Assembly: GCF_013408305.1 (NCBI RefSeq)
Contig: NZ_JACBZS010000001.1
Span: forward strand, 1 to 64,000
From: Naumannella cuiyingiana
GTDB lineage: Bacteria > Actinomycetota > Actinomycetes > Propionibacteriales > Propionibacteriaceae
DNA length: 64,000 bases
Direction of reading: 5' to 3'
In this document: piece after piece, positions 51,345 through 64,000 of the stretch
How the letters are laid out: the number at the start of each line of letters is the position of its first letter
How positions within the stretch are numbered: the stretch's first letter is position 1
Notes under the pieces: model-generated
What the model saw: only the letters and a program-made list of their open reading frames with translations
Told to the model about the DNA's origin: nothing
The model's database searches: none
Translations under genes and position numbers: made by a program

Positions 51345-51386
51345 TCGGGCTGACAGGATCTGAACCTGCGACCCCTTGACCCCCAG
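51345..51386 (-). other. 3' half of tRNA-Pro(GGG): attachment-site copy (att)
   Basis: Read on the minus strand from 51386, the 42 bases run from the anticodon loop (CTGGGGGTCAAG, anticodon GGG) through the variable loop and T-arm (GCAGG, loop TTCAGAT, CCTGT) to the acceptor 3' strand CAGCCCG and A73. The 5' half with D-arm is absent to the right. Such a lone 3' half is the footprint of tyrosine-recombinase integration into a tRNA gene. The T-loop has G where the near-invariant A58 is expected, as in a fragment no longer under selection. The tRNA polarity places the inserted element to the right of it. Confidence 0.8.
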
Positions 51387-51700
51387 GTGCCAGGAAGAAG
51401 GCTGGTGGCCCACCTGATCTGGGATTTTCTGTTTCAGAAGCGTGCTCTGCAGGTCAAGTCTTGCAGGGTTTGCAAGCTGTTGGTCACTTGATTGGTCCAC
51501 TCCTCCTAACCGCCCCGATCTAGCCCGATGTACTGGCGGAGCGCATCTACGTCTGCTCGGGGCCTCGAAATTCCTCTGTGGACCGAGCGTGACTATAGAC
51601 AACGCGCAGCAACTCGCTCGTAGGGCGGAGGTACGCGTCGTGTGACACCAGCGCCGAGAGGCAGGTCCGCCAAGAACCCATCACCTCCAGCCCAAGTTCT
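51387..51700. other. Gene-poor end of island
   Basis: About 314 bp next to the att copy, with no supported gene. It has a small perfect hairpin CTTGCA-GGGTT-TGCAAG (about 51462-51478). Recombinase arm sites could lie here, but nothing shows this directly. Confidence 0.5.
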
Positions 51701-52558
51701 TCACCTATCTCCCCACGTTGCTTTGCCATCTATACCCAGCCGCGCCTCTACGGACTCGCGCAAGCGCTCGATGGCAGGCAGTTCCTCGGCTCCATCTGCG
51801 TCCATCCACTCCATGTCGCCCCCACCCCATAGATCGCCGTATGGCGGAGGCGGATCGAGAAGCAGCGCCTTTGGGATGCCTCCGATCTCACCCACGATCT
51901 GCTGTAGCTCGCTGTACATGGATTCCACGTCGAGGGCGCAGCCGAGCGCGGGTCGACCTGCTAGGAGGTGGCTCATCCAGATGATGGCAGGCCAAGAGAC
52001 AGGACCGTGTACACCTTTGTCGTGCTCACGTCTTACCAATTCCATCAAGTCGCTCAAGACCCATGCCCGAGACTCAGGGTGGACCTCTAGAGCAGTCGCC
52101 GCCCAGACGTAGTGGAAAGGCGCGGAGATGAGAACGAACTGGTCGCAGTCGCGGTTGAGCCCGAAGGCGGCATCAATCATCCGAATATGAGGTCCGCTGC
52201 CTGTCGCCCAGCGTTCCAACAGATCGGGCCCTTCGGAGTCCAGGACATCGCCGCCGTAGATTCGCAGTGCGCTTTCAAGAAGACCCGGGATGTAGCTTCC
52301 GGGCGCATCCAGGTAACCTTCTTCGATCTCACGGGTGGCACGAGCTGGTACTAGTCTCGTTGCACCTGATTTCGCCGGATTGTGATCGATTGGGCGTAGG
52401 CGCCGAGCGTAGAGAGGAAAGAAGCGCTCATCCCTGAGCGCGAGCGTTCCATAGCCAAGAAGGTAGGGCGCAATGAAGCGTAGTTTTTCCATTCGCGATA
52501 ATGCCGCCTCGGCGATCGAGAAATCATCGAGTTCTCGACCGCGGAGAGCGTCCACCAC
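51701..52558 (-). CDS. Unknown protein, last gene of the methylase operon
   Basis: A 285-residue soluble protein that I do not recognise. It is helical, with many aromatic and acidic residues, HIRMIDAAFGLNRDCDQF, SRAWVLSDLMELVRREHDKG and a C-terminal acidic GGGDMEWMDADGAEELPA. The GTG at 52558 overlaps the preceding gene by 35 bp; an ATG at 52492 would avoid the overlap, but neither has a good ribosome site. It belongs by position to the seven-gene unit and its codon use is like its neighbours in the island. Confidence 0.65.
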   Translation of the reverse strand: MVDALRGRELDDFSIAEAALSRMEKLRFIAPYLLGYGTLALRDERFFPLYARRLRPIDHNPAKSGATRLVPARATREIEEGYLDAPGSYIPGLLESALRIYGGDVLDSEGPDLLERWATGSGPHIRMIDAAFGLNRDCDQFVLISAPFHYVWAATALEVHPESRAWVLSDLMELVRREHDKGVHGPVSWPAIIWMSHLLAGRPALGCALDVESMYSELQQIVGEIGGIPKALLLDPPPPYGDLWGGGDMEWMDADGAEELPAIERLRESVEARLGIDGKATWGDR

Positions 52559-52994
52559 TGAACGGGGGCGACACTTCTTGACGCACTCGCCGATGCTGTT
52601 CGAGCACGTCGGCGACTAGTCGTTTCCGATCGTCGGGAGCATGAAATCGATAGCCTCGGTAGTTGTATTGACCCCACAATATTCCCGCGCTTCTGATTCG
52701 CGCATTATCGGGTGTTCCCGATAGCACAAGATGGAAGAAGAACAGCGGTCGAGGAAACTCGTCGAGAGAGCTACCAAAAACCTTCGTGGCGTTATTCGCG
52801 AGACCTGCGGAGGGAGTTGACTCCACTTCGAATATTAAAGGTTGAACGTCGTTAACTTCGGCTGCGGTCCACGATAGATCGACCGCGGCACTGTGACCCA
52901 CTCGGAGCTCTCGGCGGACTTCGCAGCCCAGCGCGTCTCCGAGACGCTCTAGACCGTCTATAACGGCCTTGCCGGGAGCGAGTATGTGCTTCAT
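52524..52994 (-). CDS. Small protein with PD-(D/E)XK-like residue pattern
   Basis: A 156-residue protein, family not recognised. Asp39 in AAVDLSW, then Glu56 and Glu58 in PLIFEVES and Lys71 in NNATKVFG are spaced like the acidic and basic residues of a PD-(D/E)XK nuclease core, set between predicted strands (PLIFEVE, LFFFHLVLS). This is a pattern match by eye. ATG 52994 overlaps the stop of the gene before it (ATGA). The C-terminus, rich in Ser, Arg and Pro, may be out-of-frame tail caused by an old frameshift into the next gene. Confidence 0.6.
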   Translation of the reverse strand: MKHILAPGKAVIDGLERLGDALGCEVRRELRVGHSAAVDLSWTAAEVNDVQPLIFEVESTPSAGLANNATKVFGSSLDEFPRPLFFFHLVLSGTPDNARIRSAGILWGQYNYRGYRFHAPDDRKRLVADVLEQHRRVRQEVSPPFSGGRSPRSRTR

Positions 52995-54055
52995 GCCGAA
53001 AGGGCGCCGTCCGCAGCGTAGTCGAGCGCCTCCTGCACCCAAGCCGAGGTGAAGGCCTCGTGTGTCTGGTAATCGCCAACTTTGTAGCGGCCGTTGGCCT
53101 TCGAAGAAGCCATGAGTTCGGTCAGCCGAAGCCGGTCAATCACCACGCCGTAGTCGTTTTCGCGAAGACGGGCCTTCTCTGAAGCTACGGCGCGGAAGTC
53201 CTCCTTCTTCTCCTCAGGCTGTTCGTGGTGCTGAGGAAACGGCACAAAGAGCATCTCGATGTGCGTGTGCGACGGCGCCTTGTCGAACCAGGGAAGAAAG
53301 TGGCCGTCGATGAAGGACTTGATGGGCTTGGCGATCCAGTTCCGGCCCGAAGCCACCTGTCCGTACGCGACAATTGACGCTGCTTGCCCGTCGAGGAACG
53401 GACGCCAGGCGACGATGTCCACGGTGCCGTCCGCAGCGTTTGCAGATAGACCCAATGGCCGTTCTTCCGGCGCCACAGCGGTGCCCATCATCGACGCGAG
53501 GTCCTGGATCGCTTCGAGCATTCCCGAGCCGTCGGGCCGTGGAAAGCCGAACCAGTAGGCGCGTCCGCCCAGCACTTCGGCTGCCGTCAGATACGACTCT
53601 ACCTGTAGCGCTCTCGCGCTTGATTTGAACACCTCGTGGTCGCTCTTCGTCGGCAGCAGCTCGGAGTGGATCGCAGAGATCAGGAGGCAGCAGATGTAGC
53701 AGTCGTGTGCTGCGACCTCGGCGTCGCTCTCCGCTGCGCGACGCCGGAGGGCCCACTTGCCGTACTCCGGCACAAGCTCGAACGGATACCGAGCGCCGAG
53801 CACTCGTTCGCGGTAGGCAAGCTCCTCGTAAACGCGCTCGGAAAGCTCGTCGTTCTCGGGCTCCAGAATCTCTTTGTCGACCAGCTCAGCGTCGATGTCA
53901 GTCAGGAGGCTGCCATGGTCGGGCTCCCGTTGAACGGTCTGGCTTCGGATCAGACTCTGTTCGTTCGCGGCGGACGCGTTCAGGAGGGCGTGCAGTTCCA
54001 CCCAGTCGGCCGCGACGCTCCTCGTTGAGCGCTCCGGAGGCGCATTAACTCTCAT
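52991..54055 (-). CDS. Unknown protein, possible nuclease-type effector (DIVAW...GQxASGxNW)
   Basis: A 354-residue protein. The first 210 residues are mostly helical and unknown. From 211 comes GTVDIVAWRPF and, 20 residues on, VAYGQVASGRNWIAKP: a strand-Asp213, strand-Gln233, then Lys243 arrangement seen in divergent restriction-like nucleases of defence loci, where the Glu is often replaced by Gln. The classic ExK is not intact, so activity is uncertain. ATG 54055 overlaps the EGNRR protein by 11 bp. Place between the methylase group and the small D...ExE...K protein suggests it is the effector part. Confidence 0.6.
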   Translation of the reverse strand: MRVNAPPERSTRSVAADWVELHALLNASAANEQSLIRSQTVQREPDHGSLLTDIDAELVDKEILEPENDELSERVYEELAYRERVLGARYPFELVPEYGKWALRRRAAESDAEVAAHDCYICCLLISAIHSELLPTKSDHEVFKSSARALQVESYLTAAEVLGGRAYWFGFPRPDGSGMLEAIQDLASMMGTAVAPEERPLGLSANAADGTVDIVAWRPFLDGQAASIVAYGQVASGRNWIAKPIKSFIDGHFLPWFDKAPSHTHIEMLFVPFPQHHEQPEEKKEDFRAVASEKARLRENDYGVVIDRLRLTELMASSKANGRYKVGDYQTHEAFTSAWVQEALDYAADGALSA

Positions 54056-55112
54056 CGGAAGAGCGGCCTCCGAGGTGTGCCTCTTTCATCGCATTGACCA
54101 CGATGGTCACCACGCGAAGGGTTGCTTCCGCGTCATCGACCAGATCAGACCTCGGATCGTAACGAGCGATGATTCGGGAGACGTCTTCGGCAGAGCTGGC
54201 GAGTTGGTAGAACGCCTTTTCGAATGCCTTTGCCTTGTCTTCGACGACATCGAAGGCGCGGTCCAGGTCACGGTTGGATTCGAGCACGCGGATTGCACGC
54301 TCGCTGCCCAACACGTTGATGAGCCGTCCGAGATCGGGGTTCTGGCTCCTGATCAGCGCCGGTTCGTCTTTTTGTCCGTAGAGCCACGACAGGAGGTCAC
54401 GTAGATGCGCTCGGTGCGATGCCGGCACTGGCTGGGACGGAAGCACCGAGTTGTCGCTCTCAGGCAGCCCTAGGAACTGACGGACGTTGGCTGTCGAGAG
54501 CGCAGTGTAGAGGTGGGAGAAGTAGAAAGACGTCCTAGAACGGAGTTCGCGGTCGAAGAGCTTGGTCTTCTCCGCTTGCTCTAGCACCACAACGCCGTTG
54601 ACGAGTCTGCTGACCGTGTTGTGTCCGTCGCCCAGCCTGCGGCTGACTTCGTCGATGTCGTCTCCGTCTTGGAGCCATGAATGCGCGAATCGAGCCTTCG
54701 CATAGGAGTCCCATTTGAAGGCGCCGTTGACGTGCTTGAAGCCGATGAAGTCGCGCGCTTCTTTGCGGCTACCGACATAGTTGACCTGGATCTCGGTCGG
54801 TATCGCGTTCGCGTGTAGTGGCTGCGGCAGCGTCACTTTGAACTGCTGCTGGAGGTGGGGGCTCGCGATGATGCGCAAGGCCGCGAGGCGCCGGTTGCCC
54901 TCGACGACGGTCCGTGTTGATTCCTCGACGATGAGAGGCTCGAAGTCGAGCCACCCTGAGTTGCCGATGGACTGGATCAGCTCGCCCAGGTCGGCCTGTG
55001 CGTAGAGGTAGGCGATTGCCGCTTCTTCGTCGGTGAACTTCGCGTCGGGGATGCGCGGGTTCGCGAGGTCGAGAGAGAGCATGTCGGGTGATGCTTTGTC
55101 CAGCCGCGCCAT
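54045..55112 (-). CDS. ParB-like EGNRR protein, 355 aa
   Basis: An N-terminal ParB/Srx-type domain (about 10-85): LDLANPRIPDAKF, ELIQSIGNSGWLDFEPLIV, TVVEGNRRLAALRII (71-83). EGNRR stands where ParB has its GxRR/GERR nucleotide loop. A helical middle with a likely HTH (DEVSRRLGDGHNTVSRLVN, about 165-185) and a helical C-terminus follow. So it can probably bind DNA and perhaps a nucleotide. ATG 55112 shares a base with the methylase stop (TGATG). It is a paralogue of the 500-residue protein on the other side of the methylase. Confidence 0.75.
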   Translation of the reverse strand: MARLDKASPDMLSLDLANPRIPDAKFTDEEAAIAYLYAQADLGELIQSIGNSGWLDFEPLIVEESTRTVVEGNRRLAALRIIASPHLQQQFKVTLPQPLHANAIPTEIQVNYVGSRKEARDFIGFKHVNGAFKWDSYAKARFAHSWLQDGDDIDEVSRRLGDGHNTVSRLVNGVVVLEQAEKTKLFDRELRSRTSFYFSHLYTALSTANVRQFLGLPESDNSVLPSQPVPASHRAHLRDLLSWLYGQKDEPALIRSQNPDLGRLINVLGSERAIRVLESNRDLDRAFDVVEDKAKAFEKAFYQLASSAEDVSRIIARYDPRSDLVDDAEATLRVVTIVVNAMKEAHLGGRSSDES

Positions 55113-56032
55113 CAGCGTGCTCCTTCGGTAGTGGCGTCTGCCAGCTGCACGAGGCCGGCATGCGCAGACTGAATCTCCTCGGGAATAGACAGTTCCGTCG
55201 AGAACACCATGATTTCGCTGGCTTTCATCACGCGGCGAGCCGAGTAGTTCAGTGCGAAGAGTCTCCTGCGCAGGTCTGAGTAGAGTTCTGCGACCTGCGG
55301 CACGTTGTCGTAGGTGAGAATCCACTTTGCCCGTTGCACAGCTTTGAGGCAGTCCGCGAGAGCGCGGTGGTCGGAGTCTCGGAAGGCGTTGAGATAGAGC
55401 GATCCTGCCTTCTCGAAGTAGGGCGGATCGGCGTAGATGAAGGCGTCGTCGCGGTCCGAGTACCGCTCGATGACACGCAGACCATCCTCGTTGGTCACGG
55501 CTATGCGGTCTGCGTGCAGCGCGATTAGGCGGATGCGCTCGGCCAGACCTTCGCGGTTGAAGCGAGCGTCGATCTTGTAGTTGCCCGTCTGGTCCTTCCC
55601 GCCGATGGGTCCGCCGTTGAGGACGCCTGAGCGGTTGGTTCGATTGAGATAGAACGTTGCGAATCCGAGCGGGAGGTAGTTGTCGCGGGCGGAGGTCAGA
55701 TAGACTTCGCGCTGTCGTTCCCACTCATCGACGGAGAGCTCGACGCTATTGACTAGCGCGGTGAACTCGTCGGGCTGGGTGACGACTGCGTTCCAGAACG
55801 CGAACACGGCAGGATCAAGGTCGTTGATCGCGATCCGCTCGACCTGACCGGAGACGAGCAGCGCGAGGGCCGCGCCTGCACCTCCTGCGTAGGGTTCGAT
55901 GTACACGCTTGAGGTGAGGTTGTTCTCTCGGATAATGGTCCGCAGGCGTGAGTAGAGCAGGCCTTTGCCGCCGGGGTAACGCAGCGGTGAGATGGTCACT
56001 CGTTTACGTACAGATGTCGCTGTCTGGGTCAT
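55112..56032 (-). CDS. DNA adenine methylase, Dam/D12 class
   Basis: A 306-residue N6-adenine methyltransferase of the D12 (alpha) class. Order: RYPGGKGLL (18-26), SAM motif IEPYAGGAGAAL (45-56), NDLDPAVFAFW, the TFYLNRTNRSG stretch, and catalytic DPPY in FIYADPPYFEKAG (202-205). All D12 motifs are in the family order and length is near E. coli Dam. The recognition site cannot be read from sequence. ATG 56032 overlaps the preceding stop (ATGA). The position between two ParB-like proteins, with no typical restriction enzyme beside it, is unusual. Confidence 0.92.
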   Translation of the reverse strand: MTQTATSVRKRVTISPLRYPGGKGLLYSRLRTIIRENNLTSSVYIEPYAGGAGAALALLVSGQVERIAINDLDPAVFAFWNAVVTQPDEFTALVNSVELSVDEWERQREVYLTSARDNYLPLGFATFYLNRTNRSGVLNGGPIGGKDQTGNYKIDARFNREGLAERIRLIALHADRIAVTNEDGLRVIERYSDRDDAFIYADPPYFEKAGSLYLNAFRDSDHRALADCLKAVQRAKWILTYDNVPQVAELYSDLRRRLFALNYSARRVMKASEIMVFSTELSIPEEIQSAHAGLVQLADATTEGAR

Positions 56033-57531
56033 GGCTTGAGAACCGTCTTCATGACTCCTTCGATGGTCGCCCAGCATTCACGAACGTCGTCGGGTGTAGC
56101 AAAAATGTGATGGTTGTGGTTGGTGGCATCGAGCTGTGCTTTGGAGCCCACGAAGCCGTAACGTCCACCTCGGATCTTCTGAACAGGCTGGATGAATGCG
56201 GTCTGTCCGGTGGACTTGAAGTGCTGTTCGAGCCAAACGAGGCAGTTCGAGAGGTACACAAATCCCTGCTCGTTCGAGCTCCTCTTGATCTCCTCACCGA
56301 GCACCTCGGCGTGAGCCTTGATCGTCTTTTCCAGGAAAGTCCGGAGCAAGTCAAGTGTCGCGTTTGGGAAGCGCTGGATGTTGAGCGCCGACAATTCCTT
56401 CACGATCTCGTGTATCGAAGCGGGGAACGACGTCGGGACCGTCAGGTTGTCGGTGTTCAGATAGTTCCTCTTCCGCGGAAGCGGCTTCGGCTTGTCCCGT
56501 CCAGCGTCGTTCGATCCGCGAGAGTCGCCAACTGCGCCGTCATGAGCCTGCGATCCCTGGCCCTGACCGTCGGAGCCCGGGGGCTGACTCCCGTTCGCCG
56601 GGGAGTTCGACGCCTCGGAGTGTGTGCTGGCCGTCTCGCCGTTAGCTGGCTCGTCGTCTTTATGCTCTTCGAGCAGGTCGCGCAGGTCATCCATGTACTC
56701 GACGTATCGGTCGCTTGAGGTCTTGTTGAGGGTACGCGTGTTGATCACGCCGTCGCGGATGTCGCTCACGATCTTCGTCGCGACTCGCTTGAACAAGCCG
56801 GCGCTGGACACGAGGGAGACCTCTCCAGTGCCGTTCTGGATGTGGATTCCGACGAGGTCGAGGAATCTCTCGTTCTCGTAGAGGCGCGCGAGGGTCGACA
56901 CCGGGAAGCGGCGTTTGCGTGCGTAGTCGCCCAATGACGGGTCGTCGTAGGTGACGTTGCGGAACAGTTCGAGAATCTTGCTCCGCGTGATGAACTTCCG
57001 GACGTCGATGGTTGGGTACTGGGCGATCAGCTCCTCCGGCGATTTGCCGGCGTCGAGCTGCGCCTGGAAGAACGCGGCCTGCCTGGCGGGACCCCACGCC
57101 ACGCGTTGATTGCCGGTGTGAAGTGCTGCGACGAGTTGGTCGGCATCGTCCTGCGAAGGCGCTTTCTTGACGGTGATACGGCGGATCGCGGCACGATCGG
57201 GCACCGCCTGTGCGAGCTTTCCGATGCGCGCTTGGTGATCGGGCGCGAGGTACGGGTTCTGGATAGCCTTCAGCGCGGCGACACGTCGATTTCCCTCGAC
57301 CACGATCAGTTGACCGTCACGCTCCAGGACGATGGGAACCTCGTGTGTCAGCAGGCCGACCTTGGCGATACCTTCAACGAGGCTCAGTGCCTTCTCGTTG
57401 GTGAACACGTCCTGGACGATGTCGGATTCCGGAACGCCTTCGGGGATGTCGAGTCGGACGTTGCGCGGGTCGAGTCGGACGTCGTTGACAACGTCGACGA
57501 CCAACTCCTCCCACGTAGACATGTCGATCAT
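56029..57531 (-). CDS. ParB-like EGNRR protein, 500 aa
   Basis: Residues about 10-95 form the ParB/Srx-type domain: VRLDPRNVRLDIPEG, LVEGIAKVGLLTHEVPIV, LIVVEGNRRVAALKAI (75-90). A helical middle (about 115-290) is followed by a Ser/Gly/Asn-rich low-complexity linker (about 298-350) and a C-terminal helical domain. No nuclease motif is seen. GGAGG five bases before ATG 57531 fixes the start. It lies 12 bp after the HTH gene and overlaps the methylase gene by 4 bp. Partition ParB features such as a CTP-binding GERR motif are only partly kept. Confidence 0.75.
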   Translation of the reverse strand: MIDMSTWEELVVDVVNDVRLDPRNVRLDIPEGVPESDIVQDVFTNEKALSLVEGIAKVGLLTHEVPIVLERDGQLIVVEGNRRVAALKAIQNPYLAPDHQARIGKLAQAVPDRAAIRRITVKKAPSQDDADQLVAALHTGNQRVAWGPARQAAFFQAQLDAGKSPEELIAQYPTIDVRKFITRSKILELFRNVTYDDPSLGDYARKRRFPVSTLARLYENERFLDLVGIHIQNGTGEVSLVSSAGLFKRVATKIVSDIRDGVINTRTLNKTSSDRYVEYMDDLRDLLEEHKDDEPANGETASTHSEASNSPANGSQPPGSDGQGQGSQAHDGAVGDSRGSNDAGRDKPKPLPRKRNYLNTDNLTVPTSFPASIHEIVKELSALNIQRFPNATLDLLRTFLEKTIKAHAEVLGEEIKRSSNEQGFVYLSNCLVWLEQHFKSTGQTAFIQPVQKIRGGRYGFVGSKAQLDATNHNHHIFATPDDVRECWATIEGVMKTVLKP

Positions 57532-57543
57532 GACGTCCTCCGT

Positions 57544-57795
57544 TCAGCGAGAGCGTCTCGATTGGTAAGGGACGTGCGGACGGTATCGCGTGCTGTCACT
57601 CATTCCCCCACTCTTCGCGGTGTCCTTGCCGCCTCGGACCACTGCGAGAACGTCGCTGCGGAGGAAGCGCCAGGCCCGTCCAACTTTCTCGCCCGGCAGG
57701 GAGCCTTCGCGGGCGAGCGCGAGCACGGTCTTGGTGCTCACGCGCAGCAGCGCGGCAGCCTCCTCCGTCGTGAGAACTTCGTGTTCTTCCGCCAT
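57544..57795 (-). CDS. Excisionase-family helix-turn-helix protein
   Basis: An 83-residue DNA-binding protein. VLTTEEAAALLRVSTKTVLALAREGSLPG followed by KVGRAWRFLRSDVLAVV is the HTH_17/excisionase (MerR-like) fold. A basic 25-residue tail follows. It is the first gene of the minus-strand operon, 12 bp ahead of the 500-residue EGNRR protein. It may be the operon's regulator or the recombination directionality factor of the island. ATG 57795. Confidence 0.82.
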   Translation of the reverse strand: MAEEHEVLTTEEAAALLRVSTKTVLALAREGSLPGEKVGRAWRFLRSDVLAVVRGGKDTAKSGGMSDSTRYRPHVPYQSRRSR

Positions 57796-58048
57796 CTTCT
57801 CGCACGCTCCTCTTGCGGGGTCTAACGTCAGGCTATCAGCGACAGCCGTCAGCGACGTCGGTCCACGCGGAGTGGCGGTGCCGCCCGTGCTGCCCGCGAG
57901 GGAAAGCCGGTTCGTCGCGTTAGGGAACGAGGAAGCCCGATAGGCATCGAGAGCCTCCCGGTCGCCGCAGTGTCCCCGTGACTGACCGACCTCTTGCAGC
58001 GTGAGGCGGATCAGGGCTTCGCAGAGCTTGTGCAGGAGGGGGAGGTGC

Positions 58049-58147
58049 ATGATGGGCACGTACGTGAAGAAGACCGCCCGGCGTCGCTACGACGAACGAC
58101 AGTTCACCGTCCGCGCGGGCGCCGTGACCCGCCCGACCTGGCGGCGA
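58049..58147 (+). pseudogene. Frameshifted start of a conjugation-island small protein
   Basis: GGAGGGGGAGGTGC directly precedes ATG 58049, and the frame opens MMGTYVKKTARRRYDERQFTVR. A YDERQFTVR stretch followed by RRDPPDL is, as I recall, how a small conserved protein of actinobacterial conjugative islands begins. Here the RRDPPDLAAT part is present but in another frame, so a one-base change has broken the gene. After about 58147 the sequence is the 3' end of the membrane protein on the other strand. Recognition is from memory and not certain. Confidence 0.35.
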
Positions 58148-58490
58148 CCATGGGCCGGTGGCCGGCCCGCTGCTCGCGGCGGCGTGCGGCGTGCTCGCGG
58201 AGGCGGGCGCGGAGCAGGAGGACGAGGCTGACCGGCCCCATAATGACGAACTTCATCGCGTTGTAGATGAACAGCAGCACGATCAGGTGCAGCCACCCGA
58301 GACCGCCGCCGGCGATGAGCTGCACGCAGAGGTTCGCGGTGTACAGGTACGGGATGGCCAGCAGCATCGCCGGCAGGCCCCAGCGCAGTCCCCGGCGGGT
58401 GCGGATCGCGTCGAGCAGGATGTTGGTAGGCATGTAGCGGCGCAGGAAGTAGCGAGTGTGGACGCTGAGAGCCCAGATAAGTCGGAGCAT
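58104..58490 (-). CDS. Small membrane protein of conjugative islands
   Basis: A 128-residue protein: MLRLIWALSVHTRYFLRRYM, PTNILLDAIRTRRGLRWG, then two membrane segments (LPAMLLAIPYLYTANLCVQLIAGG and LHLIVLLFIYNAMKFVIMGPVSLV) and a basic tail. Very similar proteins, often mislabelled sulfate permease, occur beside relaxase genes in actinobacterial mobile elements; this is recalled and not searched. It has no transport-protein hallmark. ATG 58490. Codon use is like that of the GC-rich part of the island. Confidence 0.7.
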   Translation of the reverse strand: MLRLIWALSVHTRYFLRRYMPTNILLDAIRTRRGLRWGLPAMLLAIPYLYTANLCVQLIAGGGLGWLHLIVLLFIYNAMKFVIMGPVSLVLLLRARLREHAARRREQRAGHRPMVAARSGGSRRPRGR

Positions 58491-58710
58491 GGACAGACCT
58501 CTTCAAAGGTTCGGCGACAAGAACCTGAAAGGACCGCCCGTTGCCGGGAAGGTCATACCGTCGCAAGGAGCGACAGCACCACATAAGAGGCCGCCTCGGC
58601 AGCCGGTTTACGACGCCGCGCAGACACCCGGAAGAGGCAAGGCGAGCTTGCCCGCCCCAACGCTCGCGTGTGCGCTCCGCGTCTGGGCGTGTCCGTGGTG
58701 GACTTGAGGC

Positions 58711-59856
58711 ATGGATAATGCGTCGTTGCTGATTGACCAGCGCTCGGCCTCCCTGGCTGCCGCCGGGGAGGATGTGCGGGCGTGGGCGAGCGGGCGGCGG
58801 GTGTTCGTGTCCAGCCTGATCACCGACATGCCCGACGAGCGGGCCGCGGTGCGGGCAGCGATCGAGTCGGCCGGGGCGACGGCGGTGATGTTCGAGGATC
58901 TCGGAGCACAGGACGTCTCGGCCGAGCAGGCCTACCTCTCCGGGGTGCGCAGCTCCGAGGTCTACGTGGGCATGTGGGGTTCGCGCTACGGCGTGCGGAT
59001 GCCTGACGGGTACTCGGCCACGCATGCGGAGTTCTTGGAGGCCGAGCGCAACGGCCTGCGGCTGTGTCTGTTCGTGCATGGCGAGACCGGCGGGGAGATG
59101 GATGGTGCGCAGCGCGATCTGGTTCAGGGCGCCCGCAACCTGTATACGACGAGCCCGTGGAGTGACCCGGACGACCTCGGTCGGCGGGTGCGGCGTCGTC
59201 TGGAGGAGTTGGCGGCGGAGGAACTGGCGCCGTGGGTGCGGGTGGGCCGGACACTGTTTCGTGCGCGGGAGATCACCAACGACGGGAAGACGATCTCACT
59301 TACTGCGGCGGTGCGCAGCGACGCGGTCCATGCCGAGCTGGTGCGCCTGCGGGACAACCGGGCCGGCGGTGTCCCGTTCGCCTCCCCTCACACGGCGCTG
59401 TCGGTGCAGATCGTGGAGTTGTCCACCAGGACCGTCTCGACGATTGGTCATGAGGAGCGGCTGACGTTGGTCGCACAGGAGCAGCGGGGCTCGAGTATGC
59501 GCGCATCCATCAACGGAGTATCGGCCGACGAGGTCGGGCAGCGGGCGCTGTCCGACGGGCTGTTCGGCACCTCGCTGCTTGGCCAGCAGATGGGGTGGAT
59601 GGCACGCCCGATCGATCCGCTGGCATCGCTGCGGGGACTGGGCCTGGACGACAGTGTCCTGCGTCCGGTGGCGCGCCTCCTGTTCGCTGAGCGGCTGATC
59701 ACTGACCAGGCCGCGTCCAGGATCGACTCGTTCGCGCTCGGCCCCTCCCACCAAGGCGCACGCCGGCTACGGGCCACCTGGACCCCGCCGCAGGTCTATG
59801 TGAACGAACCTGACCCAGCCCCCGTCTCGATCGACGGAACCGTGATGGGCCTGTGA
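58711..59856 (+). CDS. DUF4062 domain protein
   Basis: A 381-residue protein. Residues about 28-125 are a DUF4062 domain: RRVFVSSLITDMPDERAAVR, AGATAVMFEDLGAQ, YLSGVRSSEVYVGMWGSRYG, and SATHAEFLEAERNG. It is a TIR/Rossmann-like fold, common at the N-terminus of STAND-NTPase defence and signalling proteins. No NTPase or repeat domain follows; the rest (about 160-381) is unknown and contains mixed alpha/beta sequence. Alone-standing and flanked by mobile genes, it may be a defence or signalling protein of the island. ATG 58711 with a weak TGAGG upstream. Confidence 0.75.
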   Translation: MDNASLLIDQRSASLAAAGEDVRAWASGRRVFVSSLITDMPDERAAVRAAIESAGATAVMFEDLGAQDVSAEQAYLSGVRSSEVYVGMWGSRYGVRMPDGYSATHAEFLEAERNGLRLCLFVHGETGGEMDGAQRDLVQGARNLYTTSPWSDPDDLGRRVRRRLEELAAEELAPWVRVGRTLFRAREITNDGKTISLTAAVRSDAVHAELVRLRDNRAGGVPFASPHTALSVQIVELSTRTVSTIGHEERLTLVAQEQRGSSMRASINGVSADEVGQRALSDGLFGTSLLGQQMGWMARPIDPLASLRGLGLDDSVLRPVARLLFAERLITDQAASRIDSFALGPSHQGARRLRATWTPPQVYVNEPDPAPVSIDGTVMGL

Positions 59857-59934
59857 TCGAGACGGGCGCTCAGGGGATGGACCTGCGTGGTGCGGGTCTT
59901 GTGGATCGGCCAAGCCTGCTTCAGGTTCATGTGA

Positions 59935-60564
59935 TTACAGACTGAGCGAGTCCCGCTCCTGCGTGCGACGCGTCGTGGGCTCATCCGCGCTGTTGATGAT
60001 TCGGCTGGCGTGGTCGAGGGCGGTCTTCGCGCGGGCGGCGTCGATCTTCTGCGCGGTCGATGCGGGCAGGGCACCCAGGGGTATGTCGTCGGTGATGCCC
60101 CACAACGCTGAGGCCGACTTCGGGATCGAGAAGGTGAAGTCGAACCCGGCCACCGCCCGCCGTTTGCCGCGTTCGGTCTCCTCGGCTTCGATCCGCGCGA
60201 CCGCCTCCCCCTTCGCGCCTGGGCTCAGGCCGGGGTCGAGGTCGGCGATCCGGGCGTCGATCCGCTCCGGCACCGACTTGTAGGCCGGGAACGCATGCCC
60301 GAGCGGGTCGCCGGTGATCGGGTCGCGGCCCATGCCCATCAAGAGCTGGAGCTGGGCCTCCGACACCCGATCACCGACCGCGAGCTGCCCCTTCCCGAGA
60401 CCAGTGACACCAGCGCCGAACCATTGGCCTGGCGGTGTTCCCTCCTCCACGTAATACCTCGTCAACGGCGTGGACAGCTCACGGTCGCCATCCGCAGCCG
60501 CGACCGTACGCAGGAGATATCTGTAGCCATCGCCCGCGCTCATCACCCGCATCGAGACGGTCAC
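59935..60564 (-). pseudogene. MobF/TrwC-type relaxase, truncated and fused
   Basis: The GTG at 60564 opens MTVSMRVMSAGDGYRYLLRT, followed by STPLTRYYVEEGTPPGQWFG with the Tyr pair that cuts DNA in TrwC-like enzymes, and goes on to GFDFTFSIPKSASALWG, the normal lead into the HUH histidine region. There the similarity stops: the last 60 residues (ALPASTAQKIDAARAKTALD and so on) do not belong to a relaxase, and the His cluster and helicase domains (normally many hundred residues) are gone. So a deletion has joined the relaxase head to the tail of another gene. Not able to mobilise DNA. Confidence 0.75.
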
Positions 60565-60598
60565 ACCACCCAGGTGCGCGACTCACTTCGAGGAGCTA

Positions 60599-61849
60599 TT
60601 AGATAGGGCGCTCCTCGCCAAGCAGCCCCACGACCTCATGGGGTACCGCAAAGTGAGACGACTTCACGCCAGTCTCATACACGGCGTCGAGCAAAGCGGG
60701 AACGCCGTATGGCACATCCCCCTTTGCTTGAAGTTCGGCCGTGACGCGCTTGACGGGTCGCGTGAATCCACGCAGCATCTGGCTCTCGTCACGATTATCC
60801 AGTTCATAGACGCGCGCCCGCGAGATTCTTCCGCCATTCGCAATCGCTTCTCTGATCACATCAGCCTGCGTATGACCCTGAGAATCGAGCTCCCTCAGAA
60901 CTGCTCTCGCCGCGTCAGCGCTCCACGGGACATGCTCTGGTTCCTCGTCACGCACTCGCTCGATGTCGTGGACGGACTCAAGGCTGGTTCCCACATTCAG
61001 CGCCGAAGAGTGCTTGATCAGGTCCGCTGGTTCGAGAAGAAAGAACCGACACTTAGTCGCTTGAAGGTACTCGTCGACCAGCTCGTGGCGGGCACCGATG
61101 ATCGACCCTCGATCTGCCCGGTTCCACCAATCTTCTTTCGTGTCTGCGGTCACAAGCACCAGGTCGACTCCACGCTCACCGCCCTCAAGAAGCAGTTGAT
61201 GCCAGACAAGATAGTCCCCTGACGCCCCTTCCGGGAGGTCAGACTCAAGCTTTTCTACATCCATATAGCCAGGCGGGATCGAGTTCTCTACCCGTCGTTC
61301 GCCCTCTTCGACCGCCTTCTTCCAGTCCTCTTCCGAGAGCGCGGGGCCAACAGAGTCTTCCAGCAATTGTTCCAGTCGTGCCAACAAGCTGTCTTCGGAC
61401 GTGGGCGCGTGAGCGGAGACTCTGATGGGCTCCTCACCTACTCGTTCACGCAACCCGTCGTAGAAGTCGTCCACTTCTTTGGTCAGGTTGGCCCTTTCCG
61501 CACCAGGAAGGGCAACACTCTTGGCCCAACGGGTTATCGCGTCCTTCGTTGAGGTCGAGTTCTTCGCCAGCGCTGCTTGGGCGTCCCTGGACGCGCTGCC
61601 TAGGCTCGCGATGACCGACTGGCGATTACGCCAGAACTCTCTGACCACCTGGTGCGGTACGAAGAGGCGCTCTGCGGCAGCCTCGGCCACGCGCAGCAAG
61701 TCATCGACAGTCTTCTCGTTGTACCGGTAGAGATTCAGCAACACATTGGTGTCAAGGGCAACGACGCCGTGCTGGAGCGCTCTCTTGATGTCTTCCGCTG
61801 TGAGGACGCGGTACGCCTCAAAACCTGAGTACAACCCGCCTCTGCCCAC
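60599..61849 (-). CDS. PIN-like domain protein (DUF4935 type)
   Basis: A 416-residue protein. Its N-terminal half carries a PIN-like RNase core: VVALDTNVLLNLYRY (Asp33), FVPHQVVREFWRNR (Glu71), GDYLVWHQLL (Asp about 213) and LVLVTADTKEDWW. A long helical insert with charged residues lies between the second and third. The C-terminal part (about 310-416) has HTQADVIREAIANGGRISRARVYEL, a winged-helix-like stretch. GTG 61849 has AGGAGCGAGA directly upstream. Large PIN-like proteins of this kind are common in defence islands; the target is unknown. Confidence 0.78.
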   Translation of the reverse strand: MGRGGLYSGFEAYRVLTAEDIKRALQHGVVALDTNVLLNLYRYNEKTVDDLLRVAEAAAERLFVPHQVVREFWRNRQSVIASLGSASRDAQAALAKNSTSTKDAITRWAKSVALPGAERANLTKEVDDFYDGLRERVGEEPIRVSAHAPTSEDSLLARLEQLLEDSVGPALSEEDWKKAVEEGERRVENSIPPGYMDVEKLESDLPEGASGDYLVWHQLLLEGGERGVDLVLVTADTKEDWWNRADRGSIIGARHELVDEYLQATKCRFFLLEPADLIKHSSALNVGTSLESVHDIERVRDEEPEHVPWSADAARAVLRELDSQGHTQADVIREAIANGGRISRARVYELDNRDESQMLRGFTRPVKRVTAELQAKGDVPYGVPALLDAVYETGVKSSHFAVPHEVVGLLGEERPI

Positions 61850-62001
61850 TCTCGCTCCTCAGCGCCCGTTCGTCGTTGGGTGTCAGCCTACGACCAGCGC
61901 GCCGCCTCAGTGGCGACCTTGCCTCGATCTGCAAGACGCGTGGCAGCTCTCGGTGGTGGTGGACGAAGGTGGTTGGCTCGCTGCTTGTTGTGCGCCAAGG
62001 C

Positions 62002-62940
62002 TCAGCGTGCAGTCCAGGCAGGTGTCCAGCCGTCGGAGTCGGTGGACGTCGTTCGGATCGCGGCGAGGTACGCGCGTAACTCGGCGAGCCCTGGCTGCGG
62101 GTTGGCCTGCAGCCAGATGAGCGAGTGGGGGTAGATCGGGGTCGGGTCCCGTAACGGGATACGTCGGAGGTCGTAGCGGGCCGGCCAGAGGTAGCGGTCG
62201 CGCTCACCGACCAGCGTCGCCAGATCGGCAGACTCGGCGAGCTGGTCCATGAGGGCTTCGTCGCCGAAGTGGGGGCCGAGGGCATCGATGGTCAGGTCGA
62301 AAGCGGCAGCGAGGTCGCTGTAGAAGGTCGCCCACTCGGTTCCTTCGACAATGCCGGGAATCCAAATCCGGTGGCCGGCGAGCTGCGAGGGAGCCAGCTC
62401 TCGTGCGTTCGCCAACGGATGGTGGGGGCCAAGCAGGACTTCGAGCCGGTGGTCGATGGCTCGCACAGTTGCAACCCCGTCGGGTAGTTGCGACGGGGGC
62501 ACTGTGACGACGCGGAAGGAGGCATTGATGGTGCCGTCGTGGACCGCGGCGATCGCGGCTGTGAGGTCGCTGTCGATCAGGGTGACGATGTCGAGGTCTA
62601 TCTCGGGATGAGCGCGGTGGAAGTCGTGCAGGATCACGGCCGGGGCGATCCGCCGGTTGGTCACGTCGACCCGCAACGCGCGTCTGCCGGGTTGCACTGA
62701 CTCGGTTGCGCGCGCCGCGACGCGCAACAGCTCGCGTGCGTGCGGGAGGAACGCTTGCCCGTCGATGGTGAGCTGTGCACCGCGCGCGGTCCGGGTGAAC
62801 AGGGCGACCCCGAGCTGGCGCTCCAACACGGCGATGCGCTTGGAGATCGCCTGCTGGGTGACGCCCAGGTCGATCGCCGCCTCCTGGAACTGGCCCAGGT
62901 CGGCCGCGGTCGCGAACGTCCGTACGGCCTCCACATCCAT
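62002..62940 (-). CDS. LysR-family transcriptional regulator
   Basis: A 312-residue regulator. HTH: RTFATAADLGQFQEAAIDLG and VTQQAISKRIAVLERQLGVALFTR; the ligand domain starts near 90. The end of the protein, DSDGWTPAWTAR, is short and polar. ATG 62940. It is divergent from the DnaE fragment; a small palindrome lies 17 bp upstream of its start. No metabolic partner gene is next to it, so its regulon is not in view. Confidence 0.92.
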   Translation of the reverse strand: MDVEAVRTFATAADLGQFQEAAIDLGVTQQAISKRIAVLERQLGVALFTRTARGAQLTIDGQAFLPHARELLRVAARATESVQPGRRALRVDVTNRRIAPAVILHDFHRAHPEIDLDIVTLIDSDLTAAIAAVHDGTINASFRVVTVPPSQLPDGVATVRAIDHRLEVLLGPHHPLANARELAPSQLAGHRIWIPGIVEGTEWATFYSDLAAAFDLTIDALGPHFGDEALMDQLAESADLATLVGERDRYLWPARYDLRRIPLRDPTPIYPHSLIWLQANPQPGLAELRAYLAAIRTTSTDSDGWTPAWTAR

Positions 62941-62956
62941 CCGCCATCCTACTTCA

Positions 62957-62971
62957 ACAACCTCTAGTTGT
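62957..62971. promoter_or_regulatory. Small palindrome upstream of LysR gene
   Basis: ACAAC-CTCTA-GTTGT: perfect 5-bp arms, 15 bp in total, just upstream of the LysR start. LysR proteins bind T-N11-A type dyads in the gap to the divergent gene, and this fits by size and place. Confidence 0.4.
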
Positions 62972-63107
62972 GGCTCTCCGACGGTCTGGTTGTTTGTCGC
63001 CGCCTACGTCCGATTGATCGAATCTATGTAGTCAACAGTCGGTTGTGGATGGAGGTCGTGCAGGTGGGCGGAGCGTACGAGGCCGGAGTATCAGCGGGGT
63101 GGTCAGC

Positions 63108-63992
63108 GTGACTTCGAGGGACTCGTTCGTGCATCTGCACGTTCACAGTGAGTATTCGATGCTCGACGGGGCAGCACGCGTGAACCCGCTGATCGCTGCG
63201 GCCGTCGAGCAGGGCATGCCGGCGGTCGCGATGACCGATCACGGCAACGTGTTCGGCGCGTTTGAGTTCTGGCGGGCCGCGACCGATGCCGGGATCAAGC
63301 CGATCATCGGTACAGAGGCCTACCTGACACCAGGCACCGCGCGGCAGGACCGTACCCGGGTGCGGTGGGGTGAGGGCGGCAGTTCGGGTGATGATGTCTC
63401 TGGGTCGGGCGCGTACACGCACATGACGCTCTTGGCCGAGACCACCGCGGGGATGCACAACCTGTTCCGGCTGTCCTCGCTGGCCTCGATCGAGGGCTAC
63501 TACTTCAAACCGCGGATGGACCGCGACCTGCTTAGCCAGTACGGCTCGGGACTGATTGCGACCACCGGTTGCCCCTCCAGCGAGGTCCAGACTCGTCTTC
63601 GCCTCGGCCAGTACGACCAAGCCCGCCAGGCCGCCTCGGACTTCCGCGACATCTTCGGACCGGACAACTTCTTCTGCGAGGTCATGGACCACGGCCTGGG
63701 CATCGAACGCCGCGTCATGACCGATCTACTCCGGCTCGCCAAAGAGCTGACCCTGCCGTTGGTGGCAACCAACGATCTGCACTACGTCGCCGCCGAGGAC
63801 GCCACCAGCCACGCCGCGTTGTTGTGCGTGCAGTCCGGCAGCACCCTCGATGACCCGAAGCGGTTCAAATTCGATGCCGATGAGTTCTATCTAAAGTCGG
63901 CCGCGCAGATGCGGGAGCTGTTCCGCGACTACCCCGAAGCGTGCGACAACACGCTGCGCTGGGGTTTCCGTTCAGTACCGGGGAGAAGCTGA
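63108..63992 (+). pseudogene. DNA polymerase III alpha (DnaE) N-terminal fragment
   Basis: About 294 residues that match the PHP domain and start of the palm of DnaE1: [57 protein letters not shown] and [15 protein letters not shown]. After EACDNTL the usual continuation (LIAERC and onward) is replaced by a short unrelated tail and a TGA, so at least 800 residues of the polymerase are absent. GTG 63108 or 63099 begins it. A full dnaE must exist elsewhere. It may be a captured gene piece or an insertion junction; the right edge of the window hides which. Confidence 0.7.
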
Positions 63993-64000
63993 CCAAGGCG

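What the first reader, a model, noticed from the sequence alone, without database searches (positions are those of the whole stretch)
51345..51386. Orphan tRNA-Pro(GGG) 3' half marks the island junction
The 42-bp piece from anticodon loop to A73 lacks its 5' half and carries a T-loop change (TTCAGAT). The orientation predicts that the intact tRNA and the integrase are to the right, beyond the window, and that everything from 51387 rightwards is imported. This agrees with the change in composition and gene content.
Basis: partly seen in the sequence, partly recalled or inferred. Interest (0 to 1): 0.7.

Follow-up and report, generated by a model that had tools for sequence, protein, structure and literature searches.

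The report
Decayed defence island in tRNA-Pro
The stray half tRNA gene is the scar where a 14-kb piece of foreign DNA carrying likely anti-virus genes jumped into a proline tRNA gene; the piece has lost its own insertion enzyme but still has both ends that such an enzyme would recognise.

Summary
Confirmed. 51345-51386(-) is the 3' half of tRNA-Pro(GGG). The intact gene is at 65682-65756(-), 1.7 kb beyond the window and 14,338 bp from the half. The stretch between is a foreign island: GC 0.633 against 0.707 and 0.717 outside. The intact tRNA now uses a 3' half and terminator that came with the island.

The predicted integrase is absent: no PF00589 or PF00239 match in the island, and the genome's two PF00589 matches are XerC/XerD-like. 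The trwC relaxase is internally deleted. Yet both ends keep a direct repeat (AAGTGGACCAAT) that also lies at both ends of an integrase-positive element in the same tRNA in G183. The distal end recurs in 5 of 198 family genomes, in 4 genera. By definition this is a CIME: att sites kept, integration and transfer genes lost. Its cargo includes an HTH/A1/MTase/A2/X operon related to PD-Lambda-5.

The anatomy is a new member of a known kind. The bolder, unproven reading is a family of integrase-less defence islands moved in trans. A strictly empty site was not found, so whether the left flank is native or an older occupant's end is not fully settled.

The parts
51345..51386 (-). Displaced 3' half of tRNA-Pro(GGG), distal att site (core from anticodon loop to A73), T loop TTCAGAT. 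Its partner, the intact tRNA-Pro(GGG), lies beyond the window at contig 65682-65756(-) (window = contig C1:1-64000)
51299..51344 (-). Terminator-like hairpin behind the displaced half (-15.0 kcal/mol; its counterpart behind G015's intact tRNA -22.5); resembles the flank of intact tRNA-Pro in G015, G163, G070, G039, G003
51387..51503 (-). Distal arm of the element; homology with G055, G128, G183, G051 begins at the arm repeat
51491..51502 (-). Distal copy of arm repeat (GAGTGGACCAAT, 1 mismatch to AAGTGGACCAAT). Proximal copies lie beyond the window at 65499-65510 (exact) and 65522-65533 (2 mismatches)
51701..53042 (-). Y and Z: two overlapping ORFs in different frames (53042-52524, 52558-51701) that correspond to one uninterrupted frame in Oceanitalea stevensii L087; probably a split gene here
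52991..54055 (-). X, 354 aa, no Pfam or NCBIfam match; predicted winged helix plus PD-(D/E)XK-like nuclease (tentative)
54045..55112 (-). A2, 355 aa; PADLOC PD-Lambda-5_A match (scanned as part of the longer ORF 54045-55724, residues 211-348); ParB-like by motif (name recalled)
55112..56077 (-). B, 321 aa, D12 (Dam-like) N6-adenine DNA methyltransferase, PADLOC PD-Lambda-5_B 6e-110
56029..57531 (-). A1, 500 aa, PADLOC PD-Lambda-5_A 1e-39; ParB-like by motif (name recalled)
57544..58059 (-). HTH_17 / excisionase-type DNA-binding protein upstream of the operon
58711..59856 (+). DUF4062 protein; relatives in the G128 (95%) and G051 (93%) elements
59935..60564 (-). trwC relaxase remnant: N-terminal ~157 residues and a C-terminal tail, the middle deleted at about 60099
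60599..61849 (-). PIN_8 domain protein
62002..62940 (-). LysR-type regulator
63045..64000 (+). Broken dnaE paralogue, three open pieces in at least two frames (63045-63992, then beyond the window 64280-64741 and 64763-65425)
51387..64000 (.). The island as far as the window shows it; it continues to 65681, where the proximal arm (65454-65681, terminator -28.3 kcal/mol, 91% to G128 over 227 nt) meets the intact tRNA

Best explanation
A mobile element with a tyrosine integrase integrated site-specifically into the 3' half of tRNA-Pro(GGG). Its attP carried the same 42 bp plus a terminator, so the tRNA stayed functional, while the previous 3' half with its terminator was pushed 14.3 kb away to 51345 and is now drifting (the anatomy is shown; the recombination itself is inferred). 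The element later lost its integrase and most of its trwC relaxase. What is left is a cis-mobilizable element (CIME): both att sites and the integrase arm-type repeats kept, no recombinase found, carrying a PD-Lambda-5-like defence operon (defence inferred from homology). It is probably immobile in this genome unless a G183-type integrase arrives.
For: Intact tRNA and displaced half as direct repeats. GC contrast. der lies upstream of the tRNA here and in 13 of 29 relatives' loci with 1.5 kb of flank and in G001, so the right flank is native. Joined flanks align with G015's intact tRNA plus terminator, 134/153. Distal arm in 5 of 198 family genomes, 4 genera, G000 included, each time beside a tRNA-Pro 3' half; proximal arm 91% to G128. 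Arm repeat at both ends, none within 1 mismatch in 71.6 kb outside. Integrase-positive G183 element has the same distal arm and repeat, with its integrase just inside the tRNA. No PF00589 or PF00239 match in the island. trwC internally deleted against a 1,178-residue Brevibacterium copy. PADLOC matches for A1, B, A2.
Against: Excision or movement was not observed. No strictly empty site was found: G015 itself has a second 3' half 1.1 kb downstream, and the flank behind the displaced half also resembles the flank of intact tRNAs in G163 and G070, which are occupied by integrase-positive elements; so the left flank may be the end of an older occupant instead of native DNA, though no further 3' half was found to the left. 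der was not found within 1.5 kb in 16 of 29 loci. The 23 kb from 28.2 to 51.3 kb is not aligned to G012 or G055. The G000/G051 segment is 93.4% identical over 7.0 kb, above the within-genus der identity of 84.9%: integrase loss may be very recent, or movement in trans may continue.
Confidence: 0.88

Rival explanations
1. Integrase-less element that is still mobile: a non-autonomous family with conserved arms and exchangeable defence cargo, excised and integrated in trans by integrases of the G183 type.
For: Both ends with arm repeats are kept in G000 and G128 although neither has a PF00589 match in the element. In five distal arms, one of them from the integrase-positive G183, 25 of 26 columns around the repeat are invariant against 36 of 86 in the rest up to the core (block limits chosen afterwards). 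G000 and G128 share both ends and a 2.2-kb block but not the rest. In 8 of 14 genomes with a same-contig, same-strand pair of tRNA-Pro 3' halves no PF00589 match lies between them.
Against: G055 shows ordinary decay: its proximal arm is cut beside a Mutator-type transposase gene. In G128 the match to G183's proximal arm runs about 30 nt past the stop of the G183 integrase frame, so a scrap of integrase may remain there and losses look separate. G000 itself encodes no helper. No excised circle was seen.
Confidence: 0.3
2. Prophage remnant instead of a decayed conjugative or mobilizable element.
For: tRNA 3' halves are also used by phages (recalled); PD-Lambda-5 tends to be prophage-encoded in Actinobacteria (passage read in PMC10482375).
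Against: No phage structural gene among the 14 island ORFs scanned with Pfam; PHROGs was not run. A trwC relaxase remnant is present. No exact match of the arm block in viral contigs.
Confidence: 0.08
3. The half tRNA is a local duplication or chance copy unconnected with an island.
For: tRNA-Pro fragments also occur as short tandem copies in G098.
Against: 14.3-kb spacing, element ends shared with other genera, GC contrast.
Confidence: 0.01

Closest known systems
CIME (cis-mobilizable element), as defined in PMC5704250 (passages read)
   Same: Integration and transfer genes lost, attL and attR retained, at a tRNA 3' end; tandem occupants of the same tRNA occur in relatives (G058, G070, G167).
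   Different: Cis-mobilization or accretion not shown here; cargo is defence-like; the examples in the passages read are mainly streptococcal.
Integrase-positive element at the same tRNA in G183
   Same: Distal arm 82% over 92 nt, arm repeat at both ends, same core.
   Different: About 40.7 kb, integrase just inside the tRNA. Only about 22 kb of it was compared; DNA matches were limited to the ends and tRNA copies.
PD-Lambda-5 (Vassallo et al. 2022, PMC9519451, passages read; PADLOC models)
   Same: A1 and A2 match PD-Lambda-5_A, B matches PD-Lambda-5_B.
   Different: Two A-type proteins, an HTH regulator and a conserved X gene in one operon; no activity test.
MADS (MAD1)
   Same: HTH_17 protein resembles MAD1.
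   Different: 44.7 bits against the NCBIfam cut-off of 80; no other MADS family among the matches shown for the other nine proteins (one of A1's 26 matches was not shown).

Membership tests
CIME | attL and attR retained | tested here: met
CIME | Integrase lost | tested here: met
   No PF00589 or PF00239 match in the island; relative G183 has one
CIME | Transfer genes lost | tested here: met
   trwC internally deleted; no other transfer gene among 14 island ORFs scanned with Pfam
CIME | Can be mobilized after accretion with a related element | not testable with these tools
   needs an excision or mating assay
Autonomous ICE/IME | Encodes its own integrase | tested here: not met
Autonomous ICE/IME | Intact relaxase | tested here: not met
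PD-Lambda-5 defence system | A and B proteins adjacent | tested here: met
   A1 1e-39, B 6e-110; overlapping ORFs
PD-Lambda-5 defence system | Protects against phage | not testable with these tools
   needs a plating assay
PD-(D/E)XK nuclease (protein X) | Nuclease fold and catalytic residues | tested here: inconclusive
   No Foldseek match at E<=0.001; VIA-align best row MspJI Z 7.3, rmsd 4.1, 132 aligned; model pLDDT 79
MADS | MAD1 equivalog score | tested here: not met
   44.7 against 80 bits

The most novel reading that the evidence does not exclude
A family of integrase-less, tRNA-Pro(GGG)-specific shells (proximal arm, distal arm, conserved arm repeats) spreads between actinobacterial genera with exchangeable defence cargo by borrowing the integrase of G183-type elements, comparable to satellites but of integrative islands. 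The cargo here, HTH-A1-B-A2-X, would be an enlarged PD-Lambda-5-type restriction system with X as nuclease.
Probability: 0.28. Interest if true: 0.62.

Novelty: new member of a known kind. Interest (0 to 1): 0.4.

Why it matters
It shows how a 42-bp scar leads to the exact limits of a defence-like island, to a likely parent integrase in another genus, and to repeats that this integrase probably binds. It makes a direct test possible: does an integrase from one genus still move an integrase-less island of another? It also points to a conserved five-gene module, HTH-A1-B-A2-X, present in 8 of the 28 genome loci found with B by a strict count, as a candidate defence system.

Tried and rejected
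Rfam at the gathering threshold gave nothing in the window; the five hits at E up to 10 around the half are far below their cut-offs and were rejected. Comparison of the broken dnaE with the genome's own copy used a wrong frame and is not used. A first XerC/XerD test used wrong frames for two of its three proteins; repeated. Foldseek of X gave no match at E<=0.001. No plasmid record matches the island at megablast sensitivity (window part only, to 64000); X has two distant plasmid relatives at 31% and 25%. No viral contig holds the exact arm block. A further tRNA-Pro 3' half left of 51345 was not found: best 24/42 on that strand. Paper searches for a described island family at this tRNA, for cis-mobilizable elements and defence and for PD-Lambda-5 or ParB/Dam-type defence operons gave listings, of which I read passages of three papers (PMC9519451, PMC5704250, PMC10482375); none that I recognised describes this. 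That is no proof of absence.

Limits: integrase absence in relatives rests on PF00589 alone. The place list was truncated, though its per-genome table was complete; genomes with two copies on different contigs (G112, G089, and G140) and G090, whose places were not shown, were left out of the 14. G015 and G098 have gapped or partial copies and are outside the 14. In G039 both copies are full-length tRNAs. Not every short ORF of the island was scanned. G051 is split over contigs, so its integrase status is open. A proximal-arm match in G051 (54 nt, contig C64) has no tRNA-Pro beside it. G122 shares 57 nt of the proximal arm but has no arm repeat in the 15 kb examined. G001's island has one arm-repeat-like site (1 mismatch) in its interior, so a single such site is not diagnostic.

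Full report
The observation. At 51345-51386 on the minus strand the window holds CTGGGGG...GCCCGA, the 3' half of tRNA-Pro(GGG) from the anticodon loop to A73, with T loop TTCAGAT. ARAGORN finds no tRNA in the window. In the whole genome the 42-mer, with up to 3 mismatches, occurs twice: here and at 65683-65724(-), inside an intact tRNA-Pro(GGG) at 65682-65756(-). The two are direct repeats 14,338 bp apart. The next best place in 86 kb scores 25 of 42.

The flanks. Right: der (66797-68152) lies upstream of the intact tRNA; it does so within 1.5 kb in 13 of 29 relatives' loci and, a little further off, in G001. The right flank is therefore native. Left: the 51386->51290 stretch matches, at 88.7% over 97 nt (43 of them tRNA), what follows the intact tRNA in G015 of another genus; joining the two flanks gives 134 of 153 identities with G015 across the junction. 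The displaced half of the sister species G001 has a hairpin of the same type. The hairpin here is weaker (-15.0 kcal/mol) than in G015 (-22.5), while the intact tRNA has a strong one (-28.3) that came with the island. Two cautions. G015 has a second 3' half 1.1 kb downstream, so it is not an empty site. And the same flank also resembles the flanks of intact tRNAs in G163 and G070, which hold integrase-positive elements. The stretch left of 51345 may thus be native or the end of an older occupant. Further left, genes of window 27.4->5.7 kb lie in the same order downstream of the tRNA in G012, and those of 28.2->27.4 kb downstream of the displaced half in G055. The change from the T loop TTCRAAT to TTCAGAT affects a position that is nearly always A (A58, recalled), as expected for a copy without function.

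Composition. Island 51387-65681: GC 0.633; left 0.707; right 0.717; 431 overlapping same-length windows outside: 0.691-0.723.

A shared site. Of 198 family genomes, 14 show two or more tRNA-Pro 3' halves (or whole genes) on one strand of one contig (many assemblies are fragmentary, so a lower bound). PF00589 was searched in G000 and in the other 13, with G015 and G098. A match lies between the copies in 6 of the 14 (G183, G163, G070, G097, G167 and, weakly, G071) and in none of the other 8 (G000, G001, G128, G003, G055, G058, G039, G102). In five of the six the integrase sits just inside the tRNA and points towards it. G001, the only other member of the genus held, has a 21.8-kb island in the same tRNA that shares only the att region at the thresholds used.

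Relatives of this island. The distal arm (51387-51503) matches 5 of 198 family genomes in 4 genera, G000 included, each time next to a tRNA-Pro 3' half. The proximal arm matches 4 of 198, G000 included: G128 at 91% over 227 nt, G122 over 57 nt, G051 over 54 nt on a contig without tRNA-Pro nearby. G183's proximal arm, too distant for that search, aligns pairwise at 73% over 82 nt. G000 and G128 share both ends and a 2.2-kb block at 57937-60099 (90%), not the rest at DNA level. G051 shares 60099-53091 at 93.4% over 7.0 kb. For comparison, der is 84.9% identical in G001 and 73-81% in eight genomes of other genera; 6 of the 15 loci given held no der match, among them G051 and G128. The segment therefore moved horizontally.

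Arm repeats. AAGTGGACCAAT occurs exactly at 65499-65510 and with one mismatch at 51491-51502, in the same orientation; within one mismatch there is no place in 71.6 kb outside, within two there are 2 outside and 4 inside. In L003 up to two mismatches give 4 matches against 0.51 expected, 1 of 200 shuffles reaching 4; one of the four is internal. G128 has two proximal and one distal copy, G183 one at each end, G055 and G051 a distal copy. The stretches held of G163, G070, G097 and G167 have none; G001 has one, in its interior. In 1.22 Mb of fetched loci, overlaps included, the exact motif occurs only at ends of the G000, G128, G055, G051 and G183 elements. In five distal arms 25 of 26 columns at the repeat are invariant and 36 of 86 in the remainder up to the core (limits chosen afterwards). 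That these are integrase arm-binding sites is inferred from position and repetition. The cognate integrase is probably that of G183, the only integrase-positive element seen with them.

What was lost. No PF00589 or PF00239 match lies in the island. The genome's two PF00589 matches score 307 bits with the XerC model (cut-off 335) and 304 with the XerD model (cut-off 330; 334 against 279 for the tyrosine-recombinase subfamily). Of trwC, residues 1-157 and a tail remain of 1,178; G051 and G128 are truncated differently. In G128 the 72% match to G183's proximal arm runs to 264 nt past the tRNA, about 30 nt past the stop of the G183 integrase frame at 235, so a scrap of integrase may remain. In G055 the proximal arm is cut beside a Mutator-type transposase gene. 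These point to separate losses and favour plain decay over an old integrase-less design.

Cargo. From the distal end inwards: Z/Y (split here, one frame in Oceanitalea), X, A2, B, A1 in overlapping minus-strand ORFs, then an HTH_17 protein, DUF4062 on the other strand, the trwC remnant, PIN_8, LysR and a broken dnaE. B is a D12 adenine methyltransferase; A1, B and A2 match PADLOC's PD-Lambda-5 models. Of 28 genome loci found with B, 9 hold A1-B-A2-X in this order (L084-L089, L091-L093), L090 holds A1-B-A2 up to its contig end, and L100 has matches to all four in another arrangement. Counting only those with the HTH gene and at least 60% identity in all of A1, B, A2 and X gives 8 of 28 (L084-L089, L092, L093); in L092 the B frame has a stop near the start of its match. 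In Helcobacillus (L089) and an Actinomycetaceae MAG (L093) a tRNA-Pro 3' half lies about 115-130 nt after X; the best full-length match of these genomes is on another contig. X is modelled with pLDDT 79. Foldseek finds nothing at E<=0.001. Among the best VIA-align rows are several restriction endonucleases (MspJI Z 7.3, FokI 6.5, EcoT38I 5.9, HindIII 5.2) and winged-helix proteins, all below the level that tool calls trustworthy. I infer a modification/restriction-like system. PD-Lambda-5 tends to be prophage-encoded in Actinobacteria according to PMC10482375 (passage read).

Conclusion. The integrase does not. The island fits the definition of a CIME (PMC5704250, passage read). Whether it can still be moved in trans is the open and testable question.

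Noticed in passing
L065 3761-4142 (G098:C63, tRNA-sense orientation): Behind the intact tRNA-Pro lie four tandem copies of its 3' part, 51-53 nt each and 62-92 nt apart start to start, with altered anticodon stems: scars of repeated integration, or a tRNA-derived repeat.
   Followed up: partly
L060, L061, L063, L068, L073 upstream of the intact tRNA: A second 5' half of tRNA-Pro (1-42 to 1-48) lies 81-92 bp upstream of the intact gene in G039, G163, G055, G070 and G183, as if tandem tRNAs had been trimmed.
   Followed up: no
window 28200-51300: This 23 kb lies between the displaced half and the genes that follow the site in G012 and G055; its GC is native-like. Lineage-specific insertion, or loss elsewhere, is undecided.
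   Followed up: partly
L058 10766-11669 (G167), L056 3389-11949 (G058), L069 3885-13985 (G070): Tandem occupants of the same tRNA: successive 3' halves spaced about 0.9 to 10 kb, some segments without a PF00589 match.
   Followed up: partly
63045-65425 (+), partly beyond the window: Broken dnaE paralogue with PHP, finger and HHH domains in three open pieces, 71% identical to the genome's own dnaE over the first piece; a Microbacterium plasmid has a 77% relative.
   Followed up: partly
G000:C2:8827-9234: The second, small contig (about 32 kb by difference, probably a plasmid) carries the genome's only Resolvase-family match.
   Followed up: no
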